This document shows, piece after piece, positions 1 to 6,868 of a stretch of 6,868 bases of DNA (within the stretch, counting starts at the first letter, position 1; every line of letters begins with the position of its first letter). This DNA is from Bacteroidota bacterium (lineage in GTDB: Bacteria > Bacteroidota > Bacteroidia > Chitinophagales > Chitinophagaceae), in contig CP058707.1 of assembly GCA_013414745.1 (NCBI GenBank), positions 3,760,208 to 3,767,075 on the forward strand. Direction: 5' to 3'. Both the position numbers and the translations under genes were made by a program. A model generated the notes under the pieces. It ran no database searches, was not told the origin of the DNA, and saw nothing but the letters and a program-made list of their open reading frames with translations.

Positions 1-159
1 CAGGCTTCTCACTTTTTCTATGCCGAATTTAAGTTCTGCTAATGTCATTTCAGAAATATAACAGTTCTCTACTTTTACTTTATCAAATTTGGTTTCAAGG
101 TCAAACTTACCTTTCATGTAAAAGATAACAATATTGGTGTCAATTAGATACTTTTTCAA
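1..159 (-). CDS. vapC: VapC-like PIN-domain toxin, N-terminal 53 residues (cut by window start)
   Basis: PIN-domain toxins of type II toxin-antitoxin pairs are Mg2+-dependent RNases that cleave tRNA, rRNA or other RNA in the cytoplasm. The visible part starts LKKYLIDTNIVIFYM, in which D7 of the LIDTN motif is the first conserved metal-binding acid, and continues to ISEMTLAELKFGI, in which E42 is the second. The remaining acidic residues lie off the window. The start is TTG at 159-157: its bases overlap the TGA stop of the upstream antitoxin (158-156), a coupled TTGA arrangement usual for these pairs. No indel is seen in these 53 codons. The gene is the second of a two-gene unit in the cassette left of site A; toxin-antitoxin cassettes are known to stabilise integron arrays. 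Family assignment is firm; RNA target and full length cannot be told. Confidence 0.85.
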   Translation of the reverse strand, partial: MKKYLIDTNIVIFYMKGKFDLETKFDKVKVENCYISEMTLAELKFGIEKVRSL

Positions 160-397
160 AACGATTCAATTAGTCTTTTGAAACTCTGCTATTCCGTATT
201 TCTTCAATAATTTCTTCCGCTGATTTTTTGAGTCAAATGCTCCAAAAGCTTTTTGAATGAAGATTTTTATCAGTCAAGTCCGATTTGACCGAAGCTGATA
301 ATTTTGATATAAGGTCAAGTTTATTATCGGTACTTAGATTATCTAAAAGTCCAAGATAACCATCCACAATGGTAGTATTGATTTCTGCCGTTCTCAT
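156..397 (-). pseudogene. Antitoxin partner of the VapC-like toxin, frameshifted copy
   Basis: This is the short first gene of the toxin-antitoxin unit, expected to bind and neutralise the PIN toxin and repress the operon. It begins at ATG 397-395 with MRTAEINTTIVDGYLGLLDN and is read openly for about 53 codons, then three one-base shifts are needed: one extra A before the AFGAFDSK segment, one missing A before SAEEIIEEIRNSR, and one missing base before KRLIESF and its stop. The repaired product is about 80 residues: a helical N-terminal half with LDLISKLSASVKSDL, then a charged C-terminal tail, a layout typical of Bacteroidota antitoxins beside PIN toxins. The net shift of one missing base restores whole codons (242 nt observed, 243 needed). 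The shifts sit in or next to A/T runs, so sequencing error is as likely as decay. Confidence 0.75.
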
Positions 398-402
398 AAT
401 GC

Positions 403-410
403 CAAATATA
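403..410 (-). promoter_or_regulatory. Possible -7 promoter box before the toxin-antitoxin pair
   Basis: The minus strand reads TATATTTG, a match to the Bacteroidota -7 consensus TANNTTTG, six bases before the antitoxin ATG. Transcription from it would begin at about the start codon, so a leaderless message. No clear TTTG/TTG -33 box is found at the usual distance, which keeps confidence low. The same 12-base block (ATGCCAAATATA on the plus strand) recurs inside site A at 533-544. Confidence 0.25.
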
Positions 411-466
411 CTAAAAATTAATTTGTATTTTACTTCTCAATCGATCCCAAAGTCTTAACAACGCAT

Positions 467-602
467 GACGCACAACGGCTAGCGGCTTGGCGATGGCAGG
501 GGATTGGAGTACTAAAGTAGAGCCTATTTCTTATGCCAAATATAGTGAAAATGTTGAATTACTTTCTAAAGCCCTGCTTGCGCCAAACCGCTGTTACATG
601 CA
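467..602 (-). repeat. attC-like recombination site A
   Basis: AAC core 474-476, GTT core 593-595, 122 bp core to core. After AAC come seven unpaired bases (GGCTAGC) on the left but only three on the right (AGC, read back), then an arm of about 18 bp: GGCTTGGCGATGGCAGGG against GGTTTGGCGCAAGCAGGG, with about 65 nt between the arms. The left flank GACGCAC belongs to the vapBC cassette and the right flank ACATGCA to the next. In gene direction it follows the DUF2007-type gene, whose stop is 13 bp beyond its right end. Confidence 0.8.
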
Positions 603-614
603 GCCTTTACAATC

Positions 615-1255
615 TTAAGCGAATCTTCCGCCTATTAAAATAATGGTCATAAGAATTCCTATTAATAGTATAAAAGCCATGCTTTTGGTAACCTATGAAT
701 AACCTTGAACAATCTTGCCGTTGGGAAGAGTTTTCTTATGAGTCATTAGGAAGAAACCCCAGAGCATTCCGATAATACTCCGAGTAGTGCAAATCCATAT
801 CCGACAAGAATCCAGTAAAAGGAAGGGTCGTCTGGTTTTGATAATTCTTTTATTCTTTGTTTCCTAAAATCATTCAGTTGGTCATCTGTCACAACCATCC
901 CTCTTTTTATTAGAATTTCCTTTGTTAGGCTAAATCAATTGTTCCCCATTCGTCTTGTTTCTTTAAGATGTTTATCAATTCTTCATTCGTAAATGAATAG
1001 AGATAATAATCTGTTGGTATTTCATTTTTAGAAAATTCAACATTCGATAAGAGTAGCTGGTTTACTTTTACAAAATCTTTTCCTTTAATCTTAAGAAGTA
1101 ATTCAGTATTGATTGGAGTCGTGATTCGGGATCAAATGAGGCGTATCATTTTCAACAATATAAGGTATTTGGTTATCAACTAAAACTGCCGTTATCTCAT
1201 TCAGCTTTGAGGAACTGTCAAATCTCTTATAGACTAGAAATGAATCACTTGTCAT
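615..1255 (-). pseudogene. DUF2007-type putative signal-transducing membrane protein, frameshifted
   Basis: The N-terminal part, SDSFLVYKRFDSSSKLNEITAV followed by LLLKIKGKDFVKVNQLLL, resembles the DUF2007 fold (a PII-like domain of unknown ligand). A middle FTNEELINILKKQDEWGTIDL segment follows, then a hydrophobic stretch YWILVGYGFALLGV-IIGMLWGFFLM, a THKKTLPNGK loop and a last hydrophobic helix AFILLIGILMTIILIGG. That is the layout of a Bacteroidota family with an N-terminal DUF2007 domain and a C-terminal two-helix membrane anchor; function is unknown. ATG at 1255-1253 is chosen because it lies 26 bp inside the cassette edge, as in the other cassettes. Three one-base shifts (near 1125, 930 and 776) and an in-frame TAG at 695-693 interrupt it. 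Net shift is one missing base (641 observed, 642 needed, 213 residues). The stop TAA is at 617-615. Confidence 0.72.
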
Positions 1256-1273
1256 GAAATACGGATTGATGGT

Positions 1274-1412
1274 TGCATGTAACGGGCCGTGGCTTTGCGT
1301 TCGGTGTGGGGTAGAAAGTTCTACTGTTCAAATTTAGTACAAAAGTTCACAGAAAGTACAATTGCTGAACCAAGTGCCAAAGCCACACTGACGCCAAGCC
1401 GCTGTTGTGCGT
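1274..1412 (-). repeat. attC-like recombination site B
   Basis: AAC core 1281-1283, GTT core 1404-1406, 126 bp core to core. Left spacer GGGCCGT (7), right spacer 3. Arms GGCTTTGCGTTCGGTGTGG and, read back, GGCTTGGCGTCAGTGTGG. It shares its left arm plus GGGTAGAAAGT with site C, so B and C are one sequence class. Left flank pairs with the start of cassette A-B, right flank GTTGTGCGT with the end of cassette B-C. The lipoprotein gene ends 8 bp to the right. Confidence 0.8.
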
Positions 1413-1419
1413 TCGTGCT

Positions 1420-2034
1420 TTATTTAATTGTCAATATCACAAGTTTTTCATTAGGTTCTATATTCTCTATATGCTTTCTATTTTCATTTGAATAAACCAT
1501 AAATGGCTTGATTATTTCAAATCCATAGTATCTGAATACATTTCCCGTAATTGGATTTGGATCTTGAAGCAAATTGTTTGATGGTATTTTTTATATTATA
1601 TTTTCTGCCAATTACTTTAACTCTTGTCCTTGGTAAAAATGAGATTGAAGTTAAGTCCAGTTGTTGTCCGCCGGCTCTAAATAATAACAGTTTTCCTGAA
1701 AGTTTTTAGAGTTAATGTTCAATTTGTCTAAGTTGGATTTGTCTGAAAACTTTCTTGAATAATGTAAACTGTCAAACCAACTCGGGCAGTCACATGCAAA
1801 TCTCATGTCTACTAATTCAATGGTGTCAATTGTTTGCGAAAGTCCATTTCTTTTGTCATTAAGTAGCAATGCTGAATTTGACATTTTGCTTTTAGATAAA
1901 ATTATTTCTTTTTCTTTGCTAGTATCATTTAGCATATTCCCATTACTCTTATTGCTTATATTTCCTTGTTTGTTTTCATTGATAAAACAAGATAAAAGAC
2001 AACTGGATATCAATAAAAATAGGAGTATTCTCAT
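1420..2034 (-). pseudogene. Small secreted lipoprotein with CxCP motif, two compensating frameshifts
   Basis: Start ATG at 2034 gives MRILLFLLISSCLLSC, a short lipoprotein signal with lipobox LLSC and lipidated C16. A Ser/Asn/Lys-rich linker follows to about residue 65, then CDCPSWF (C81, C83), ENCYYLEPAD (C116), and after repair QLDLTSISFLPRTRVKVIGRKY, LLQDPNPITGNVFRYYGFEII and a C-terminal ...EKLVILTIK. The Cys-x-Cys-Pro plus FIEPA/YLEPAD pattern ending in a VFRYYxxEI strand is familiar from uncharacterised Bacteroidota exported proteins. No activity is known to me. The first 127 residues are open. One base is missing near 1661-1667 (PAD-K-QLDL) and one is extra in the T6 run at 1587-1592. 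The two cancel, giving 615 nt and 204 residues. The stop at 1422-1420 lies 8 bp inside the cassette edge. Confidence 0.7.
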
Positions 2035-2069
2035 TTAGAGTTAATTTCTTTTTATGCGGTTTGGGCATG

Positions 2070-2207
2070 ACGCACAACGGTTTTGCGCTTTGCGTTCGGT
2101 GTGGGGTAGAAAGTACTGAAGTTTAAAGTTGGTAGTATGTTCATTTAAAGTACAAATGTTGAGCCAAGTACAAAAGCCACACTGATGCAAAACGCATGTT
2201 GGTGGCA
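2070..2207 (-). repeat. attC-like recombination site C
   Basis: AAC core 2076-2078, GTT core 2198-2200, 125 bp core to core. Left spacer GGTTTTG (7), right spacer ATG (3). Arms CGCTTTGCGTTCGGTGTGG and, read back, CGTTTTGCATCAGTGTGG. Left flank ACGCAC belongs to cassette B-C and repeats the flank left of site A; right flank GTTGGTGGCA opens cassette C-D. The SIMPL gene stops 7 bp to the right. Confidence 0.82.
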
Positions 2208-2214
2208 GGTTATT

Positions 2215-2954
2215 CTATTTCCTTTCAATTTCGTATGTTATCATTATTTCTTCACTTCTTGTTATTTCTTCAACCTCAAATGAATTAAATATTTCTTCAC
2301 TCCTTTTAATAACTGGTGGTGTGAACTTTACTTGTGGTTTCAGTGGAGGAGCAAATTCAGATTGCATAATTTCATAGCTCGACTTTGATACATTTCTTAT
2401 GTCCATAATTTTTAGTCCTAATTCATTACACGTTTTATTAGCTGTTAATTTAGCGTTTCGAATAGATAATATTGCTAAACTGTCAGCAATTACTTGTTCT
2501 AAATTATCAGACAATTCATATTCAAAATTGAAATCAATATCGGTAATTTTCTTTTCTTGAAAACCCTTAATCATATTTGAGATTACTTTGGGATCATATT
2601 TTAATGTCAAAGAAGATTTTGAATTATAGAATTTTCTTTGGACTTCATCGTCAAACTCACTCTCTAAACCGAAATCACTTATTCTAATATTGGTTGTGTC
2701 AACTTGTAATAAGGAAAACAAGTCTTTTACTTTCTTAAATTCTATGTTTAAAAGCATTAAGGATTTTTCGCTACTTGTATCCTTTTTGTTATTGTAATAT
2801 TTAACTTGGCAATATCAGGTTTTATTTTTAGCTCTGCGTATCCTTTCACTGTCAAAGAATTACCATTCAATTGAGATTGAATAATAAGTCCTTGTGCATA
2901 GCTATTGCAAAATACAGTTAAAGTTAAGAGTGAAGTCAAAATAGTCTTTATCAT
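2215..2954 (-). pseudogene. SIMPL-domain (DUF541) exported protein, single frameshift
   Basis: Start ATG at 2954 gives MIKTILTSLLTLTVFCNSYA, a Sec signal peptide with likely cleavage at AYA-Q or just after. The SIMPL signature follows: NSLTVKGYAELKIKPDIAKLNITI. After one missing A in the A5 run (T5 on the plus strand at 2783-2787) the frame continues KDTSSEKSLMLLNIEFKKV and stays open for 180 further residues, with SKSSLTLKYDPKVI, ADSLAILSIRNAKLTANKT (the usual Ala-rich helix of the family) and NVSKSSYEIMQSEFAPP, ending EEIMITYEIERK. The repaired length is 246 residues, normal for SIMPL proteins (741 nt needed, 740 present). Members sit in the periplasm or outer membrane and are loosely linked to stress resistance and membrane integrity; no catalytic site is known. 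It is the only gene of cassette C-D and starts 47 bp inside the cassette edge. Confidence 0.82.
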
Positions 2955-2991
2955 AATTACTTATTTCATTTAGTTTTTGGTTCTTGCAACT

Positions 2992-3127
2992 TGCCACCAA
3001 CGGTTTGGGTATTGCCGAAGGCGGGATTTTAGCACAAAAGTTCAATAGAATTCCTGCTGTTGAACCTTGCACAGATATTTCATAGAAGCACTTCAGCCCC
3101 GCTTTTGGCAATACCTTGTTATGGGCA
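2992..3127 (-). repeat. attC-like recombination site D
   Basis: AAC core 2999-3001, GTT core 3118-3120, 122 bp core to core. Left spacer GGTTTG (6), right spacer AA (2). Arms GGTATTGCCGAAGGCGGG and, read back, GGTATTGCCAAAAGCGGG, paired throughout with two G-T wobbles on the plus strand. The arms equal those of E, G and H, but the loop is different. The GTT core and following A also supply the TAA stop of the protease gene (3121-3119). Confidence 0.85.
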
Positions 3128-3926
3128 GGTGTACTTCTCTCGTTCATTTGTCGCTAAATTTTTTGGCTTAAAAATAGTGATTGTCAAAATGCCCCAAACC
3201 GTTATTAAAAATCCCATATAGTTCACAATATTTTTGTCAGCAAGGTCTGCTGTAAATGCGATGTCTATGGTTGAGTGAAAAACAGCACAAATTAAAACAC
3301 TTGCTCTTGATGAGTTATAAAGCCAAGTCAATAAAACACTTTTGTCAATAAGCTAAATGTCCATCCGAATATACCTGCAAAGTCCATTGAAGTGTAACCG
3401 GGTCTGTAAAAGAAAAGTGGCCAATGCCAAACAGCCCAAAACATTGTCAAAATAATACTTGATGTCAAAGCATTAAACTTGTCTTGAAACCTTGGCAATG
3501 CAAAACTCGCCAACCAACTTCTTCTCCAAGTCCAAAGAAGATTAAGTTGTAAATGAAAAATGTCAATAGGTTGAATTGAGGGAACTCTTTTGAAGTTAAT
3601 AGTCCCGAAAGATTAATGGGCGATTTGTCAACAAAGTAGTTTATGATTGTCGCAATGAAAACGAGTAAGAATGGACTTAAAAGTGCGATTGTAAAATAAA
3701 TTAGTGGTCTAACTTGTAAGCACTTTTTAATCAAATTTTTTAAGCCTACACTTTTGAAATATCCAAGTCGTCAGAAACGAAGCTATTAACGGTCCAAGTC
3801 CACCAAGTCCATGGTGATATGGCAAGGTCGGCAAATTTGTCAAACCAAAGAGTGTCCATACAATGGAAGCCAAATTGTCCAATTGATTAAATATGCAAGT
3901 CCGAAATATGTTATTACTTGTTTCAT
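3119..3926 (-). pseudogene. CPBP-family intramembrane metalloprotease (CAAX/Abi type), frameshifted
   Basis: CPBP proteins are polytopic inner-membrane peptidases; bacterial members act in protein maturation, bacteriocin immunity or unknown roles. From ATG 3926: KQVITYFGLAYLINWTIWLP, PLIASFLTTWIF, PLIYFTIALLSPFLLVFIAT, NLLTFFIYNLIFFGLGEEVGWR (motif 1, EExxxR), LTMFWAVWHWPLFF (motif 2, FxxxH), SVLICAVFHSTIDIAF (motif 3, HxxxD) and a last helix GFLITVWGILTITIF. All three active-site motifs are intact in their own segments. Four one-base shifts divide them: near 3855, near 3750, after the EEVGWR arginine (about 3507), and in the A run near 3345. Net two missing bases (808 observed, 810 needed, 269 residues), the normal family size. 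The stop codon is formed by the core of site D. Only gene of cassette D-E. Confidence 0.85.
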
Positions 3927-3956
3927 TTCCGTTTAAACGTTGTCGTCACTTACACT

Positions 3957-4091
3957 TGCCCATAACGTTCTGGGTATTGCCGAAGGCGGGGTGGGATAGT
4001 AGTGATATTTTTAGGAGAACTAAACACCAGGTATCAACAATATTTCAAAGATAAAACCAAAACCCCGCTTTTGGCAATACCATGTTGGCCA
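3957..4091 (-). repeat. attC-like recombination site E
   Basis: AAC core 3964-3966, GTT core 4084-4086, 123 bp core to core. Left spacer GTTCTG (6), right spacer AT (2). Arms GGTATTGCCGAAGGCGGGG and, read back, GGTATTGCCAAAAGCGGGG. The loop (AGTAGTGATATTTTTAGGAG and onward) is nearly identical to site H and more distant from site G. Left flank TGCCCAT closes the protease cassette; right flank opens the first structured cassette. Confidence 0.85.
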
Positions 4092-4628
4092 TCAGTGTGC
4101 TCATTTGGCGGTTTTCCTATCAGTTGTTTATAATCCTGTATTTAAAATCTAACCACAAAGCAAGCCGGGCGTAGGAACTTCGTTAAGTGGCGCCTTCGAT
4201 CTACAAAAAATGGCATAAAAATTTTCCGCTTGATATTCTCATGGTTAATGCCATGAAAGCGCCACGAGTTTCTTTTCAATGTGGGTGATGAATATAGGTT
4301 TATCAGTCAAACAGCGCCGGTTTTCGATTTTTGCATATGTGTAATTCCCATTTTGGTTTGGGTTTTCGGTTTCTATTGGTAGTCCAACCGGCGCGGAGTT
4401 GAGGAACGCCCACAATACATGGTAGAAAATTCCGGTTAGTGTCAAAACAGCGCCAAGCCAATCAGCATGTGATTCTAAATGTGAACTGGTGATAAGTCCC
4501 CTGTAACCAATTTTGGCGCGGCGAAAGAGGTAAAAAACAATCGGTTGGTCATTCTCTTGCCCGCCGATTTAAGGGTAGAAATCACCGCCAAATCTAAGCG
4601 TAATGGTGGTTCGCACATTGTGGCCAAC
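4084..4628. ncRNA. Structured noncoding cassette, copy 1 (nested multi-stem element)
   Basis: No protein gene is credible over 545 bp; instead the whole cassette folds into nested stems. P0 is the cassette ends, 4084-4100 with 4613-4628. P1 is 4103-4112 with 4584-4593, 10 bp perfect (ATTTGGCGGT). P2 is 4164-4170 with 4559-4565, with one mismatch in this copy. Inside are three arms, each closed by a GCGCC-type stem: P3 4187-4193 with 4259-4265 (GTGGCGC), P4 4314-4322 with 4386-4394 (9 bp, GCGCCGGTT), wrapped by P4a 4280-4286 with 4408-4414, and P5 4450-4456 with 4513-4519. The GAGTTGAGGAACGCC block at 4396-4410 is kept in all copies. Compared with copy 3 there are one-base indels, which argues against coding. 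Function, strand and transcription are unknown. It could be an RNA or a DNA fold. Confidence 0.6.
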
Positions 4629-4719
4629 GGTTCGCAGCTTTGCGCTGGGCGGGCCTTTGGAACCTGAAATTTGCTATGGAAAAGTGATCCCCGCCTTGCG
4701 CAAAACTGTTGTTACAGGC
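4621..4719 (-). repeat. attC-like recombination site F (short form)
   Basis: AAC core 4626-4628, GTT core 4711-4713, only 88 bp core to core against 120-126 for the others. Left spacer GGTTCGC (7), right spacer 3. Arms AGCTTTGCGCTGGGCGGG and, read back, AGTTTTGCGCAAGGCGGG. The loop is shortened to about 34 nt. Belongs, by the unit boundaries, with the divergent structured cassette to its right. Confidence 0.78.
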
Positions 4720-5153
4720 TCGTGCTTGGTTTAAAAATGGCGGGATTCCTAGGTCCTGTTTCATGGTTTTCAATCAAATATAGTAAAAAGAGAGGCAGGC
4801 CAATCTGAATTCAGTTTGCAGCGCTTTCCAACTAATTATCTTGAGTTACGTTTATCGTCCGTGTAATGTTTGTGTTCTTAAAATCTACGAAGCGCTGCGT
4901 TTAGTTTTTCAAGATGAGTAGCAAATTGTCCGTAAACTAAACTGAGCGCCCTGGTTTTAAGTCTACGGAAACCGTGTGTGGTTTTCATATTCTAATAAGC
5001 CAGCTCATCATCTATGAAATACGATAGGGCGCGAGTTGAGGTACGCCAAGTCACGGTTAAAATCTCCAATGCCTGCCGGATTTAAGTCTACTGATAACCG
5101 CCATTTTTGTCTATATTCTCTCGGTAATTCTTAGCCCACGCATGGCCTGTAAC
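4711..5153. ncRNA. Structured noncoding cassette, divergent shorter member
   Basis: A 443 bp cassette with little direct sequence identity to its neighbours but the same nested architecture. P0 is GTTACAGGC 4711-4719 with 5145-5153. P1 is 4733-4743 with 5098-5108, 11 bp perfect (AAAAATGGCGG). P2 is GGCAGGC 4794-4800 with 5071-5077. P3 is GCAGCGCT 4818-4825 with 4891-4898. P4 is GCGCCCT 4946-4952 with 5026-5032. An added hairpin, GTTTAGTTT 4899-4907 with 4934-4942 (9 bp perfect), sits between P3 and P4. P5 is missing. Directly after P4 comes GAGTTGAGGTACGCC, the same block at the same place as in the other copies, which ties it to the family. A minus-strand TATATTTG box lies at 4775-4782. There is no reading frame worth calling. 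The conserved layout with changed stem sequences is the best sign that folding, not sequence, is selected. Confidence 0.6.
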
Positions 5154-5278
5154 GTTCCGGGTATTGCCGAAGGCGGGTGGGCTAGTAGTTATATTTTTAC
5201 GAGTGCTAAACACCAGGCTTCAACAATATTTCAAAGATAGAACCAAAACCCCGCTTTTGGCAATACCATGTTGGCTGT
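5145..5278 (-). repeat. attC-like recombination site G
   Basis: AAC core 5151-5153, GTT core 5270-5272, 122 bp core to core. Left spacer GTTCCG (6), right spacer AT (2). Arms as in D, E and H (GGTATTGCCGAAGGCGGG). The loop is a diverged version of the E/H loop, just as the cassette body to its right is a diverged version of the E-F and H-I bodies, so site and right-hand body have travelled together. Confidence 0.85.
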
Positions 5279-5811
5279 TAGTGTGCATCTTGGCGGTTTT
5301 CCCATCAGCTGTTTAAAATCCTTCATTTAAAATCTTACCACAAAGCAAGGCGGGCGTAGGAATTTCGTTAAGTGGCGCTTCAAATTCACTGCGAAATTGT
5401 AAGATAATTCTTCAGTTCTTATTCTCACCGTTAATGCCAAGAAAGCGCCACGAGTTTCAATTCGTTGTGGGTATTGAATTCGGATATCATTCAAACAGCG
5501 CCGGTCTTCGATTTCTTTAGATGTGGAATTCACATTTTAATTTCGGTTATCGGTTTCTATATGAAGTCAAACCGGCGCGGAGTTGAGGAACGCCCACAAT
5601 ACAAGGTAAAAATTTCGGTTAGTGTCTAAACAGCGCCAAGCAAATCAGCATTTAATTCTAAATTGGAACTAGTGATAAATCCTCTGTAACCATTTTTGGC
5701 GCGGTGAAAGAGGTAAAAACCATCGGTTGGTTATTCTCTTGCCCGCCGATTTAAGGCTAGAAAATCACCGCCAAGTCTAAGCGTAATGGTGGTTCGCACA
5801 TTACAGCCAAC
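5270..5811. ncRNA. Structured noncoding cassette, copy 2 (diverged)
   Basis: A 542 bp copy of the nested element, clearly diverged from copies 1 and 3. P0 is 5270-5286 with 5796-5811. P1 is CTTGGCGGT 5289-5297 with 5767-5775. P2 is GGCGGGC 5349-5355 with 5741-5747 (perfect). P3 is 5372-5378 with 5445-5451, P4 is 5498-5505 with 5571-5578, and P5 is 5633-5639 with 5696-5702. The stem strands are conserved while loops between P3 strands have largely changed. Paired changes relative to copy 1: P0 reads GTTGGCTGT with ACAGCCAAC instead of GTTGGCCA with TGGCCAAC, and P1 has C-G where copies 1 and 3 have T-A. A minus-strand open frame at 5327-5533 is not kept in the other copies and is not called. 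Confidence 0.6.
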
Positions 5812-5933
5812 GTTCCGGTATTGCCGAAGGCGGGGGGATAGTAGTGATATTTTTAGGAGAACTAAACACCAGTCATCAACAATATTTCAAAGATAAAACC
5901 AAAACCCCGCTTTTGGCAATACCATGTTGGCCA
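5803..5933 (-). repeat. attC-like recombination site H
   Basis: AAC core 5809-5811, GTT core 5926-5928, 120 bp core to core. Left spacer GTTCC (5, one less than its twin E), right spacer AT (2). Arms GGTATTGCCGAAGGCGGGG and the matching right arm. Near-identical to site E, differing mainly by one-base indels in G runs. Left flank ACAGCC closes cassette G-H; right flank opens copy 3. Confidence 0.85.
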
Positions 5934-6467
5934 TCAGTGTGCTCATTTGGCGGTTTTCCTATCAGCTGTTTATAATCCTGTATTTAAAATCTAACCACAA
6001 AGCAAGGCGGGCGTAAGAAATTCGTTAAGTGGCGCCTCCAATCTACATCTAAAGGCTTGAAAATTCTCAGTTTGATATTCTCACGGTTAATGCCATGAAA
6101 GCGCCACGAGTTTCTTTTCAATGTGGGTGATGAATATAGGTTTATCAGTCAAACAGCGCCGGTCTTCGATTTCTTCATATGTGGAATTCCATTTTGGTAT
6201 CGGTTTTCGGTTTCTATTGGTAGTCCAACCGGCGCGGAGTTGAGGAACGCCCACAATACAGGTAGAAAATTCGGGTTAGTGTCAAAACAGCGCCAAGCCA
6301 ATCAGCATGGATTCTAAATGGGAACTGGTGATAAGTCCCCGGTAACCAATTTTGGCGCGGCGAAAGAGGTAAAAAACTGTCGGTTGGTCATTCTCTTGCC
6401 CGCCGATTTAAGGGTAGAATTCACCGCCAAATCTAAGCGTAATGGTGGTTCGCACATTGTGGCCAAC
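5926..6467. ncRNA. Structured noncoding cassette, copy 3 (near twin of copy 1)
   Basis: A 542 bp near-identical copy of the E-F cassette. P0 is 5926-5942 with 6452-6467. P1 is 5945-5954 with 6423-6432 (10 bp perfect). P2 is GGCGGGC 6006-6012 with 6398-6404 (perfect, unlike copy 1). P3 is 6029-6035 with 6101-6107, P4 is 6156-6163 with 6228-6235, and P5 is 6290-6296 with 6352-6358. The largest differences from copy 1 are in the loop of P3 (about 6036-6090). One-base indels relative to copy 1 at about 6189 and 6309 break any shared reading frame, so the plus-strand open frames at 6123-6317 and 6318-6506 are taken as chance. Together with site H this is a duplicate of the site E plus copy 1 unit. 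Confidence 0.6.
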
Positions 6468-6595
6468 GGTTTTCAGCTATACGCAGGCAGGGATTTTAAC
6501 AACTGAACTTCCTACGAAGAACTGAACTTTAAATTTACTACTTTCCTGTCCTACGAAGTATGAAACCCTGCTTGCGTATAGGTGATGTTGTGCGT
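6460..6595 (-). repeat. attC-like recombination site I
   Basis: AAC core 6465-6467, GTT core 6587-6589, 125 bp core to core. Left spacer GGTTTTC (7), right spacer ATC (3). Arms AGCTATACGCAGGCAGGG and, read back, ACCTATACGCAAGCAGGG. The loop holds direct repeats: CCTACGAAG at 6511-6519 and 6550-6558, AACTGAACTT at 6500-6509 and 6520-6529. Right flank GTTGTGCGT opens the last, incomplete cassette; a gene stops 11 bp further right. Confidence 0.8.
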
Positions 6596-6605
6596 TCGGC
6601 ATTCT

Positions 6606-6868
6606 TTATTTCCGTTCATATATTACCATTCTAATATTGTTATAATTGTCCTGTCTTGTAAGCTTAATTTCAATGTTTATCTTGTTTTGTATTGTCCAAG
6701 AGTATGATTGATTTTTCTTTTCTTCATTTATCGAATTAGGTTCGCCAAGTTTATTAGTTAGAATCAATACAAGGTTATTAAATCTTCTCAAGAAGATTTC
6801 ACTTGCTGACTTTTCGTTTCCAAATTCTATTCTCTGTCTGTGTTTTTCCCAATTTATTGTTATAGCTC
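6606..6868 (-). CDS. Hypothetical protein, C-terminal 86 residues (5' end beyond window)
   Basis: An open frame runs from the right edge of the window (first whole codon 6866-6864) to TAA at 6608-6606, without any indel. The visible part begins AITINWEKHRQRIEFGNEKS, passes SASEIFLRRFNNLVLILTNKLG and ends DNYNNIRMVIYERK. It is rich in Asn, Lys, Ile and Glu, with an amphipathic helix around FLRRFNNLVLILTNKL and a strand-like IEIKLTRQDNYNNIRMVIYE ending. There is no transmembrane segment or motif that I recognise. A TTG at 6791 could serve as a start but the frame is open far above it, so the real start is probably off the window. It is the cargo of the cassette that begins at site I, in the same orientation as all other cargo genes. 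Confidence 0.6.
   Translation of the reverse strand, partial: AITINWEKHRQRIEFGNEKSASEIFLRRFNNLVLILTNKLGEPNSINEEKKNQSYSWTIQNKINIEIKLTRQDNYNNIRMVIYERK

What the first reader, a model, noticed from the sequence alone, without database searches (positions are those of the whole stretch)
467..6589. Integron-type cassette array with cassette-specific complementary ends in a Bacteroidota-like genome
Nine sites with AAC/GTT cores separate eight complete cassettes. In eight of eight, the start of the cassette is complementary to its end, while the two outer flanks of any one site come from different cassettes and do not match. In integrons (Stokes/Hall model) the R'' half of attC matches the cassette's own TTRRRY start, because the pair is formed in the free circle; the same logic explains these data. 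The cargo is unrelated (toxin-antitoxin, protease, lipoprotein, noncoding elements). The cores are GTTR but not strict GTTRRRY, and the complementarity is longer than usual, so this may be a separate branch of integron or a different tyrosine-recombinase cassette system.
Basis: partly seen in the sequence, partly recalled or inferred. Interest (0 to 1): 0.9.

Follow-up and report, generated by a model that had tools for sequence, protein, structure and literature searches.

The report
Half-megabase integron run by non-IntI recombinase
A bacterium, probably of the phylum Bacteroidota, carries about 300 DNA cassettes in a half-megabase chromosomal array built like an integron (the gene-collecting system known from antibiotic resistance), but the recombinase at the array's end lacks the protein part held to be essential for integrons, so this is likely a second integron lineage, and one that standard searches probably miss.

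Summary
Each site is a hairpin between AAC and GTT whose arms covary. In 293 of 344 intervals at least 5 nt at one end are complementary to the other end, against 3.5% for shuffled partners. Duplicated blocks break mostly at the AAC end of sites. A tyrosine recombinase ends the array. Of 78 loci of its relatives, 28 have sites, always on the same side. An attI-like junction lies between recombinase and first cassette in 24 of 27 loci, 0.14 expected. The recombinase lacks the roughly 40-residue IntI insertion (61-66 residues against 103) and falls outside the IntI clade. Canonical IntI occurs in 1 of 247 genomes of the class, these sites in 179. Wobble-pair bias suggests that one strand folds. 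It works like an integron but is not IntI-based: a new variant. Recombination itself is untested, and canonical attC sites resemble these weakly.

The parts
474..595 (+). attC-type site 1 (AAC to GTT)
   Evidence: R1 hit
1281..1406 (+). attC-type site 2
   Evidence: R1 hit
2076..2200 (+). attC-type site 3
   Evidence: R1 hit
2999..3120 (+). attC-type site 4
   Evidence: R1 hit
3964..4086 (+). attC-type site 5
   Evidence: not among the 150 R1 hits scored
4626..4713 (+). attC-type site 6 (short form, about 85 nt)
   Evidence: not among the 150 R1 hits scored
5151..5272 (+). attC-type site 7
   Evidence: not among the 150 R1 hits scored
5809..5928 (+). attC-type site 8
   Evidence: not among the 150 R1 hits scored
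6465..6589 (+). attC-type site 9
   Evidence: not among the 150 R1 hits scored
596..1280 (-). cassette body 1; own ends pair 7 nt; one of 3 copies in the array
1407..2075 (-). cassette body 2; ORF 1651-2034 (-), lipoprotein-like by eye, no Pfam match
2201..2998 (-). cassette body 3; ORFs 2215-2757 (SIMPL/DUF541, E 5.5e-7) and 2757-2954 (-)
3121..3963 (-). cassette body 4; CAAX-protease-like frames, split (Rce1-like E 0.0011, below the Pfam cut-off)
4087..4625 (-). cassette body 5; no ORF of 70 aa; a copy of the 49-copy family
4714..5150 (-). cassette body 6; no ORF of 70 aa; a copy of the 21-copy family
5273..5808 (-). cassette body 7; 49-copy family
5929..6464 (-). cassette body 8; 49-copy family
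1..473 (-). part of a cassette that begins outside the window; PIN-like toxin fragment (1-159, E 0.0027, below cut-off) and a small ORF (233-397)
6590..6868 (-). part of a 1,625-nt cassette that runs on outside the window (longest ORF 522 aa)

Best explanation
The window is a piece of a one-directional chromosomal cassette array of 345 hairpin sites over 507 kb that is likely assembled by an integron-type reaction, in which the tyrosine recombinase at the array's end would join cassettes, through one folded DNA strand of their attC-like sites, to an attI-like junction near its gene. SHOWN: each cassette's two ends are complementary to each other and as a rule not to their neighbours. The hairpin arms covary. 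Repeated cassettes sit in different contexts, and duplicated blocks break mostly at the AAC end of sites, which is R' (GTT) in the sense of the cassette genes. Most cassette genes point away from the recombinase. In most loci the recombinase-proximal cassette ends at an AAC that is followed by a weakly conserved motif instead of an attC arm. The recombinase lacks the IntI insertion and lies outside the IntI clade. INFERRED: that this recombinase catalyses the reaction; that the folded substrate is the bottom strand; that wobble pairs and the constant position-8 G.T choose that strand; that new cassettes enter at attI. UNTESTED: any recombination activity, expression, or a Pc promoter.
For: Scale and polarity: 345 sites at 3,475,743-3,982,496 on the + strand (which scanned that strand; the opposite-strand scan of 87 kb gave 21 hits against 73, many of them the same palindromes read backwards); the 150 best covariance-model hits of the whole genome all lie in that stretch and on that strand (only 150 candidates were scored). 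Own-end complementarity in 293 of 344 intervals. Covariation: 16 of 17 pairs show changes on both sides in 51 matches from 28 recombinase loci (two of them opposite-strand doubles), score 0.839 against 0.207 shuffled and at most 0.135 slid. Mobility: 306 cassettes in 170 families; the largest has 49 copies with 33 different left and 28 different right neighbour labels. 977 of 1,070 ends of same-direction duplicated blocks lie in a site in either copy, against 22.9% at random; starts pile up on or just before the AAC (offset 0: 143, -1: 102, of 432 in range out of 535). ORF direction 130 of 138. [quoted passage not shown] attI-like junction in 24 of 27 loci, 0.14 expected with even base use. 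Association in the class: sites in 120 of 129 genomes with the recombinase, in 59 of 118 without. In three genomes that also hold canonical IntI (G084, G093, G354) strong sites lie at the I2-less recombinase, and none was found in the 10.6-15.4 kb read around IntI. Strand: on the R1 strand G.T 29 against A.C 2 in own arms; R-box position 8 is G.T in 123 of 160 own distinct cassettes and in 22 of 24 loci, A.C in none.
Against: No recombination was observed; no excised circles or strain pairs were available. 59 of 118 class genomes without a recombinase hit at E 1e-60 still have sites, so some arrays are orphan, cut by contig ends, or use another enzyme. 9 of 129 genomes with the recombinase had no site hit. 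In 50 of 78 recombinase loci no site was found, 30 of the 78 having only about 1.5 kb of flank. The bit scores overlap: the best site exceeds 43 bits in 16 of the 28 loci, while the other 12 (27-42 bits) fall in the range of the weak hits at 4 of 20 canonical IntI loci (17-42 bits); 8 of the 10 of these 12 that were tested do have the attI-like junction. 28 block ends fall at the GTT end of a site, and 30 of 1,238 duplicate matches are inverted and were not analysed. The own recombinase gene lies 2.6 kb from its attI-like junction, with a transposase-like ORF end and another ORF between (by eye), and its N-terminal frame appears shifted, so the own system may be idle. The attI motif beyond AAC is weak. 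The arm wobble bias in A4 (48 against 11) partly reflects that hits were oriented by the model, and the own-site scan scored G.T above A.C; position 8 was not used in either. The W..W motif of the N-terminal domain was found in 22 of 34 recombinases only.
Confidence: 0.88

Rival explanations
1. A classical integron array (or CALIN) whose canonical IntI acted in trans or was lost; the neighbouring tyrosine recombinase is a bystander.
For: Half of the class genomes without the I2-less recombinase hit still carry sites (59 of 118). Four of 20 canonical IntI loci have weak R1 hits of 17-42 bits, three of the four on the same side as in the array family (L224 on the other), so canonical attC and these sites resemble each other; 12 of 28 I2-less loci score no higher.
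Against: No IntI over the cut-off in the own genome; 1 of 247 in the class. No R1 hit above 43 bits near any of 20 canonical IntI genes, against up to 119 bits, and above 43 in 16 of 28 loci, beside the I2-less recombinase. In the three genomes examined that have both, the strong sites lie at the I2-less recombinase. Constant side in 28 of 28 loci and an attI-like junction in 24 of 27.
Confidence: 0.07
2. Static repeats (REP/BIME-like hairpins) with rearrangement by ordinary homologous recombination.
For: Sites are similar to each other, so homologous exchange between them is possible; duplicated blocks exist.
Against: Homologous exchange does not make each unit's two distant ends complementary, does not favour breakpoints at one end of the site, and does not place a half-site junction next to a recombinase.
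Confidence: 0.02
3. A Xer/dif-type module system (host XerC/XerD acting on short sites, as recalled for pdif modules).
For: The recombinase profile scores archaeal XerA-type proteins as well as or better than IntI.
Against: The sites are mostly 85-125-nt covarying hairpins with cassette-specific outer arms, not a shared short core. The array-end recombinase is separate from the genome's two presumed XerC/D.
Confidence: 0.03

Closest known systems
Sedentary chromosomal integrons (superintegrons, e.g. Vibrio cholerae IntIA/VCR)
   Same: Hundreds of cassettes in one direction, each with a folding site at its gene's 3' side, R''/R' complementarity within the cassette, tyrosine recombinase and attI-like junction at one end, genes mostly pointing away, duplicates. 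A folded bottom strand is recognised in the known system (PMC8191803, passages seen).
   Different: Recombinase lacks the IntI insertion and is outside the IntI clade; R box about GTTRNNNGYAA instead of GTTRRRY, with pairing to position 12 and a constant G.T at position 8. The comparison with the Vibrio array itself is recalled, not computed here.
Canonical integron integrase IntI (TIGR02249; structure 2A3V)
   Same: Same catalytic fold and a C-terminal SPLD-like motif; IntI4 is among the closest solved structures.
   Different: 178 bits against a cut-off of 265; 61-66 against 103 residues between the catalytic KxxR segment and box II; an extra N-terminal beta-beta-alpha-beta-beta domain in the one member modelled.
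'Integron-like' subgroup of simple tyrosine recombinases (PMC8138268)
   Same: The paper notes a CAT-domain insertion that is not fully conserved in that subgroup (passage seen); the present family may fall there.
   Different: The paper calls the insertion essential for integron function; here a family without it sits at integron-type arrays. Membership in that subgroup was not tested.
NF040815 recomb_XerA_Arch ('site-specific tyrosine recombinase/integron integrase')
   Same: Best NCBIfam match, 211 bits.
   Different: Below its cut-off of 220.

Membership tests
Integron (IntI-based) | Integrase with the IntI-specific additional domain (I2) | tested here: not met
   61-66-residue spacing in 28 of 28 family members and, in a partly overlapping set, 34 of 34 recombinases at sites; 11 of 11 canonical IntI have 103; own protein 178 bits against a cut-off of 265
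Integron (IntI-based) | Recombinase inside the IntI clade | tested here: not met
   IntI clade 100/99 excludes them; both are split from presumed XerC/D 100/99
Integron (IntI-based) | attI near the integrase, joined to the first cassette | tested here: met
   junction in 24 of 27 loci, 0.14 expected; sequence level only
Integron (IntI-based) | attC: imperfect palindrome, R''/R' pair within the cassette, covarying inner arms | tested here: met
Integron (IntI-based) | R' core GTTRRRY | tested here: not met
   GTTR holds, but the second base after GTT is a purine in only 54% of 188 distinct cassettes
Integron (IntI-based) | Crossover at R', the attC belonging to the cassette whose gene precedes it | tested here: met
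   block boundaries mostly at the AAC end of sites on the + strand = R' in gene sense; inferred from duplicates, not from a reaction
Integron (IntI-based) | Bottom-strand specificity | tested here: inconclusive
   wobble bias points to the strand opposite the genes; no activity assay
Integron (IntI-based) | Cassette promoter Pc and SOS control of the integrase | not tested
   no call
Integron (IntI-based) | Recognition by IntegronFinder/HattCI attC models | not testable with these tools
   those models are not held; Rfam gave no match over a gathering score in the window
Xer/dif modules | Short dif-like core recombined by XerC/XerD | tested here: not met
   sites are long covarying hairpins and the array-end recombinase is outside the presumed XerC/D clade

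The most novel reading that the evidence does not exclude
A second class of integron, spread through Bacteroidota and here running a 507-kb array (about 12% of the chromosome), works on folded single-stranded sites without the I2 domain. Strand choice is instead written into the site itself by a nearly invariant G.T pair at R-box position 8 and by one-sided wobble pairs, possibly read by the extra N-terminal domain. It may be a sister or a precursor of IntI integrons.
Probability: 0.7. Interest if true: 0.95.

Novelty: new variant of a known kind. Interest (0 to 1): 0.9.

Why it matters
Integrons are thought to have become possible when an Xer-like recombinase gained the I2 helix (PMC7790495, abstract and passages seen). 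A phylum-wide integron-type system whose recombinase lacks I2 would mean either a second invention or a surviving earlier form, and would make the order of those steps testable. It would also mean that surveys keyed to IntI miss a large cassette pool: an early survey kept only matches with the IntI additional domain or patch (PMC2426708, passage seen), and IntegronFinder 2 reports a complete integron in Bacteroidetes only for Salinibacter, besides those in Chlorobi and Ignavibacteriae (PMC9024848, passage seen), whereas these sites occur in 179 of 247 sampled genomes of this class. Toxin-antitoxin, candidate defence and one streptomycin-adenylyltransferase-type gene are among the cassettes.

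Tried and rejected
Rfam on the window gave only one sub-threshold chance match. The reversed sequence as a control for the site scan was useless, because reversed hairpins remain hairpins (123 hits); I replaced it by non-array and shuffled DNA. The first site scan took later GTTs for some sites; mostly corrected and again. Canonical IntI as the array enzyme was rejected. The 49-copy noncoding cassette as a marker of exchange between species failed: no match at E 1e-10 in 78 relatives. Site-level sharing was seen instead: one site is 95-98% identical over 122-140 bp in G001, G006, G054 and G066, with no match listed there for the cassettes beside it (only 5 candidates a genome were scored and the list was cut). 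The N-terminal W..W motif as a family mark was only partly met (22 of 34). The tree does not settle whether the array family is one clade (2 changes).

Rows dropped or not given: 78 of 110 recombinase loci were given (all 30; 48 of 80; the 32 left out are mostly outside Bacteroidota by title). In one search, 2 of 51 hits were dropped, weak opposite-strand doubles of stronger hits; they remain in alignment A4. In one search, 26 of 28 loci plus the own one were given (L091 and L101 left out). In some searches, 114 of 128 ORFs were scanned (14 long ones left out) and only the first 25 of 80 Pfam and 131 PADLOC families were shown. YR_own1301 was not read. In some searches twenty stretches were read, six with a whole I2-less recombinase and one (L243) with a 151-aa fragment on the same side; weak opposite-strand doubles were not counted. 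The label Xer is mine, from their rank, not from a family scan. Strain comparison, replication direction and Pc were not examined. Absence from print rests on searches of open PMC papers only; bioRxiv and most subscription papers are not held.
Full report
WHAT IS THERE. The window is G000:C1:3760208-3767075 of an unnamed single-contig genome of 4,268,816 bases. It holds nine sites of the form AAC - hairpin arm - loop - arm - GTT and eight complete cassettes between them. In all eight, the bases after the GTT are complementary to the bases before the next AAC (5-7 in a row), while the two flanks of one site are not (0-3 in a row).

SCALE. A scan of the + strand for AACG...GTT with pairing arms in 549,793 bases around the window found 345 sites from 3,475,743 to 3,982,496. 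The same scan found 2 in 78 kb of non-array DNA of the genome and 3 in 200 kb of shuffled array. A scan of the other strand over 87 kb gave 21 hits against 73, many of them the same palindromes read backwards. A covariance model (R1) built from 32 of the sites listed 150 hits in the whole genome (the most that were scored), all in this stretch and on the + strand. The array thus covers about 12% of the chromosome.

CASSETTE ENDS. For 344 intervals, the start and end of the same interval pair in a perfect leading run of at least 5 nt in 293. For the two flanks of one site it is 21 of 345, and for shuffled partners 3.5% of 6,880. Pairing holds for positions 1-7, is broken at position 8 and resumes at 9-12. 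At position 8 the + strand has G opposite T in 123 of 160 distinct well-paired cassettes (11 standard pairs, 26 other, no A.C); in 24 loci, the own one included, it is G.T in 22 and never A.C.

HAIRPIN. In 51 matches from 28 recombinase loci (two are opposite-strand doubles), 16 of 17 arm pairs show changes on both sides, 93.3% of cells pair, and the covariation score is 0.839 against 0.207 for shuffled letters and at most 0.135 for slid partners. The 32 own sites give 14 of 17 and 0.694. Free-energy z-scores of single sites folded as DNA were modest, -0.28 to -2.91, so the case rests on covariation, not energy. In the arms, wobble pairs lie mostly on one strand: G.T 29 against A.C 2 in own sites (21 rows against 0), and 48 against 11 in the recombinase-locus set (28 rows against 4). 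The orientation of the second set was set by the model, which favours G.T, and the scan behind the first set scored G.T above A.C, so both are weaker evidence than position 8, which was part of no selection. I read this as selection on the folding of one strand, the one opposite the cassette genes, as in integrons. That step is inference.

MOBILITY. The 306 intervals with own-end pairing of at least 4 nt fall into 170 cassette families. The largest has 49 copies, with 33 different left and 28 different right neighbour labels; the next has 21. Among 535 duplicated blocks (at least 300 bp, at least 93% identical, same direction; 30 of 1,238 raw matches were inverted and left out) 977 of 1,070 ends lie in a site in either copy, against 22.9% for randomly placed blocks; without the two largest families it is 360 of 452. 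Among in-site ends, 28 fall at the GTT end. Block starts pile up at the AAC: offset 0 in 143 and -1 in 102 of the 432 in range. The mobile unit is therefore, for the most part, cassette body plus the attC that follows its gene, with the crossover at the end that is R' (GTT) in gene sense, as in integrons. 130 of 138 distinct cassettes with an ATG-started ORF of at least 70 aa have it on the - strand; 32 of 170 have no such ORF. One site is 95-98% identical over 122-140 bp in four other genomes, two of them in other families of the order, although no match of the DNA beside it is listed there (a capped list).

RECOMBINASE. The genome has five tyrosine recombinases of PF00589. One, at 3,985,786-3,986,913 on the - strand, lies 3.3 kb beyond the last site, on the side that the cassette genes point away from. 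Its family was searched in relatives and in named genomes. [quoted passage not shown] the gene is transcribed toward the array in 23 and away in 5. Named hosts with sites include Flavobacterium aciduliphilum, Algoriphagus ornithinivorans, Chryseobacterium sp., Aquiflexum sp. and Zunongwangia mangrovi. Twenty further stretches from genomes of other classes held six whole recombinases of this type, all six on the same side of their sites.

ATTI. If this is an integron, the cassette next to the recombinase must find its complement at a junction that is not an attC. In 24 of 27 loci (own one included) a perfect complement of 6-7 nt followed by AAC lies between the last site and the recombinase gene; 0.14 loci were expected with even base use. 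Beyond that AAC there is a weak shared motif, about N6-ATATACGCA. In the own genome it is at 3,983,176, 2.6 kb from the recombinase gene; by eye the DNA between holds the end of a transposase-like ORF and one more ORF.

NOT INTI. Between the catalytic KxxR segment and box II the array recombinases have 61-66 residues (28 of 28; 34 of 34 at sites, a partly overlapping set), canonical IntI 103 (11 of 11) and presumed Xer 65-69 (14 of 14). The own protein scores 178 bits with the IntI model (cut-off 265) and 211 with NF040815 (cut-off 220). In the tree, IntI is one clade (100/99) without them, and both are split from presumed XerC/XerD (100/99); whether the array family is itself one clade is open. 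A model of one member (pLDDT 82.6) shows an N-terminal beta-beta-alpha-beta-beta domain before the usual core; Xer-type proteins and IntI4 are its nearest solved folds.

DISTRIBUTION. In 247 genomes of the class: canonical IntI over the cut-off in 1, R1 sites in 179, the array recombinase (E up to 1e-60) in 129. Sites occur in 120 of 129 with the recombinase and 59 of 118 without (Fisher p 9e-15, not corrected for kinship). In 79 relatives it is 30 of 32 (recombinase at E below 1e-45) against 25 of 47. In the phylum sample canonical IntI is common (84 of 296), all but one of these outside the class, and R1 sites occur in 137 of 296. Near 20 canonical IntI genes no R1 hit exceeded 43 bits, 16 of 20 had none at E up to 1, and four had hits of 17-42 bits: canonical attC sites resemble these weakly. 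At the I2-less recombinase the best site exceeds 43 bits in 16 of 28 loci; the other 12 overlap the canonical range, though 8 of the 10 of them that were tested have the attI-like junction. Three genomes examined have both systems (G084, G093, G354), and there strong R1 sites lie at the I2-less recombinase and none in the stretch read around IntI. The host's own name is not known; Bacteroidota is inferred from the names of relatives and from secretion-tail domains in cassettes.

LITERATURE. IntegronFinder 2 reports only In0 elements earlier and then one complete integron in Salinibacter for Bacteroidetes (PMC9024848, passages). Reviews list Bacteroidota among phyla with integrons (PMC8618304, passage). 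Taxon-specific attC models of 2021 name no Bacteroidota (PMC8352920, passages). An early survey kept only matches with the IntI additional domain or patch (PMC2426708, passage). The IntI insertion is called essential for integron function but not fully conserved in its subgroup (PMC8138268, passages), and I2 is held to be the innovation that allowed single-strand substrates (PMC7790495, abstract and passages). In ten searches of open papers I saw no description of the present system; I saw listings and passages, not whole papers.

VERDICT. It works like an integron at the points that sequence could test here. It should not be filed as an IntI integron, because the defining integrase domain and the GTTRRRY core were tested and not met. 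I commit to a distinct integron lineage served by an I2-less recombinase; catalysis and strand use remain to be shown.

Noticed in passing
window 4087-4625, 5273-5808, 5929-6464; 49 copies in the array: A roughly 540-nt cassette without an ORF of 70 aa in 49 copies, with several short GC-rich segments by eye; no match in 78 relatives. Its use is unknown.
   Followed up: partly
window 4714-5150; 21 copies in the array: A second abundant cassette without a long ORF (about 440 nt), here beside the short 85-nt form of the site.
   Followed up: no
L010 9216-9340 against G001, G006, G054, G066: One site is 95-98% identical in four other genomes, two of other families, while no match of the DNA beside it is listed (capped list).
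   Followed up: partly
array ORFs: Cargo includes ParE, HepT, PIN and RES domains, eight ORFs with rve transposase cores, matches to candidate defence models (PADLOC HEC-05, PD-Lambda-1, RTasRmuC) and one streptomycin-adenylyltransferase-type protein.
   Followed up: partly
L013 9783-10913 (-): The array-end recombinase frame opens without its upstream ATG (apparent shift near a homopolymer, by eye) and holds several undetermined bases; whether the gene is intact cannot be told.
   Followed up: no
G084, G093, G354 (other classes): Canonical IntI and the I2-less system coexist in one genome on different contigs.
   Followed up: yes
L224 (G083), 2841-5504 (-): Four weak R1 hits (21-42 bits) beside a canonical IntI but on the side opposite to that of the array family; perhaps canonical attC sites.
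   Followed up: no
window 3328-3734 (-): The CAAX-protease-like cassette is split over several frames, either decayed or a sequencing error.
   Followed up: no
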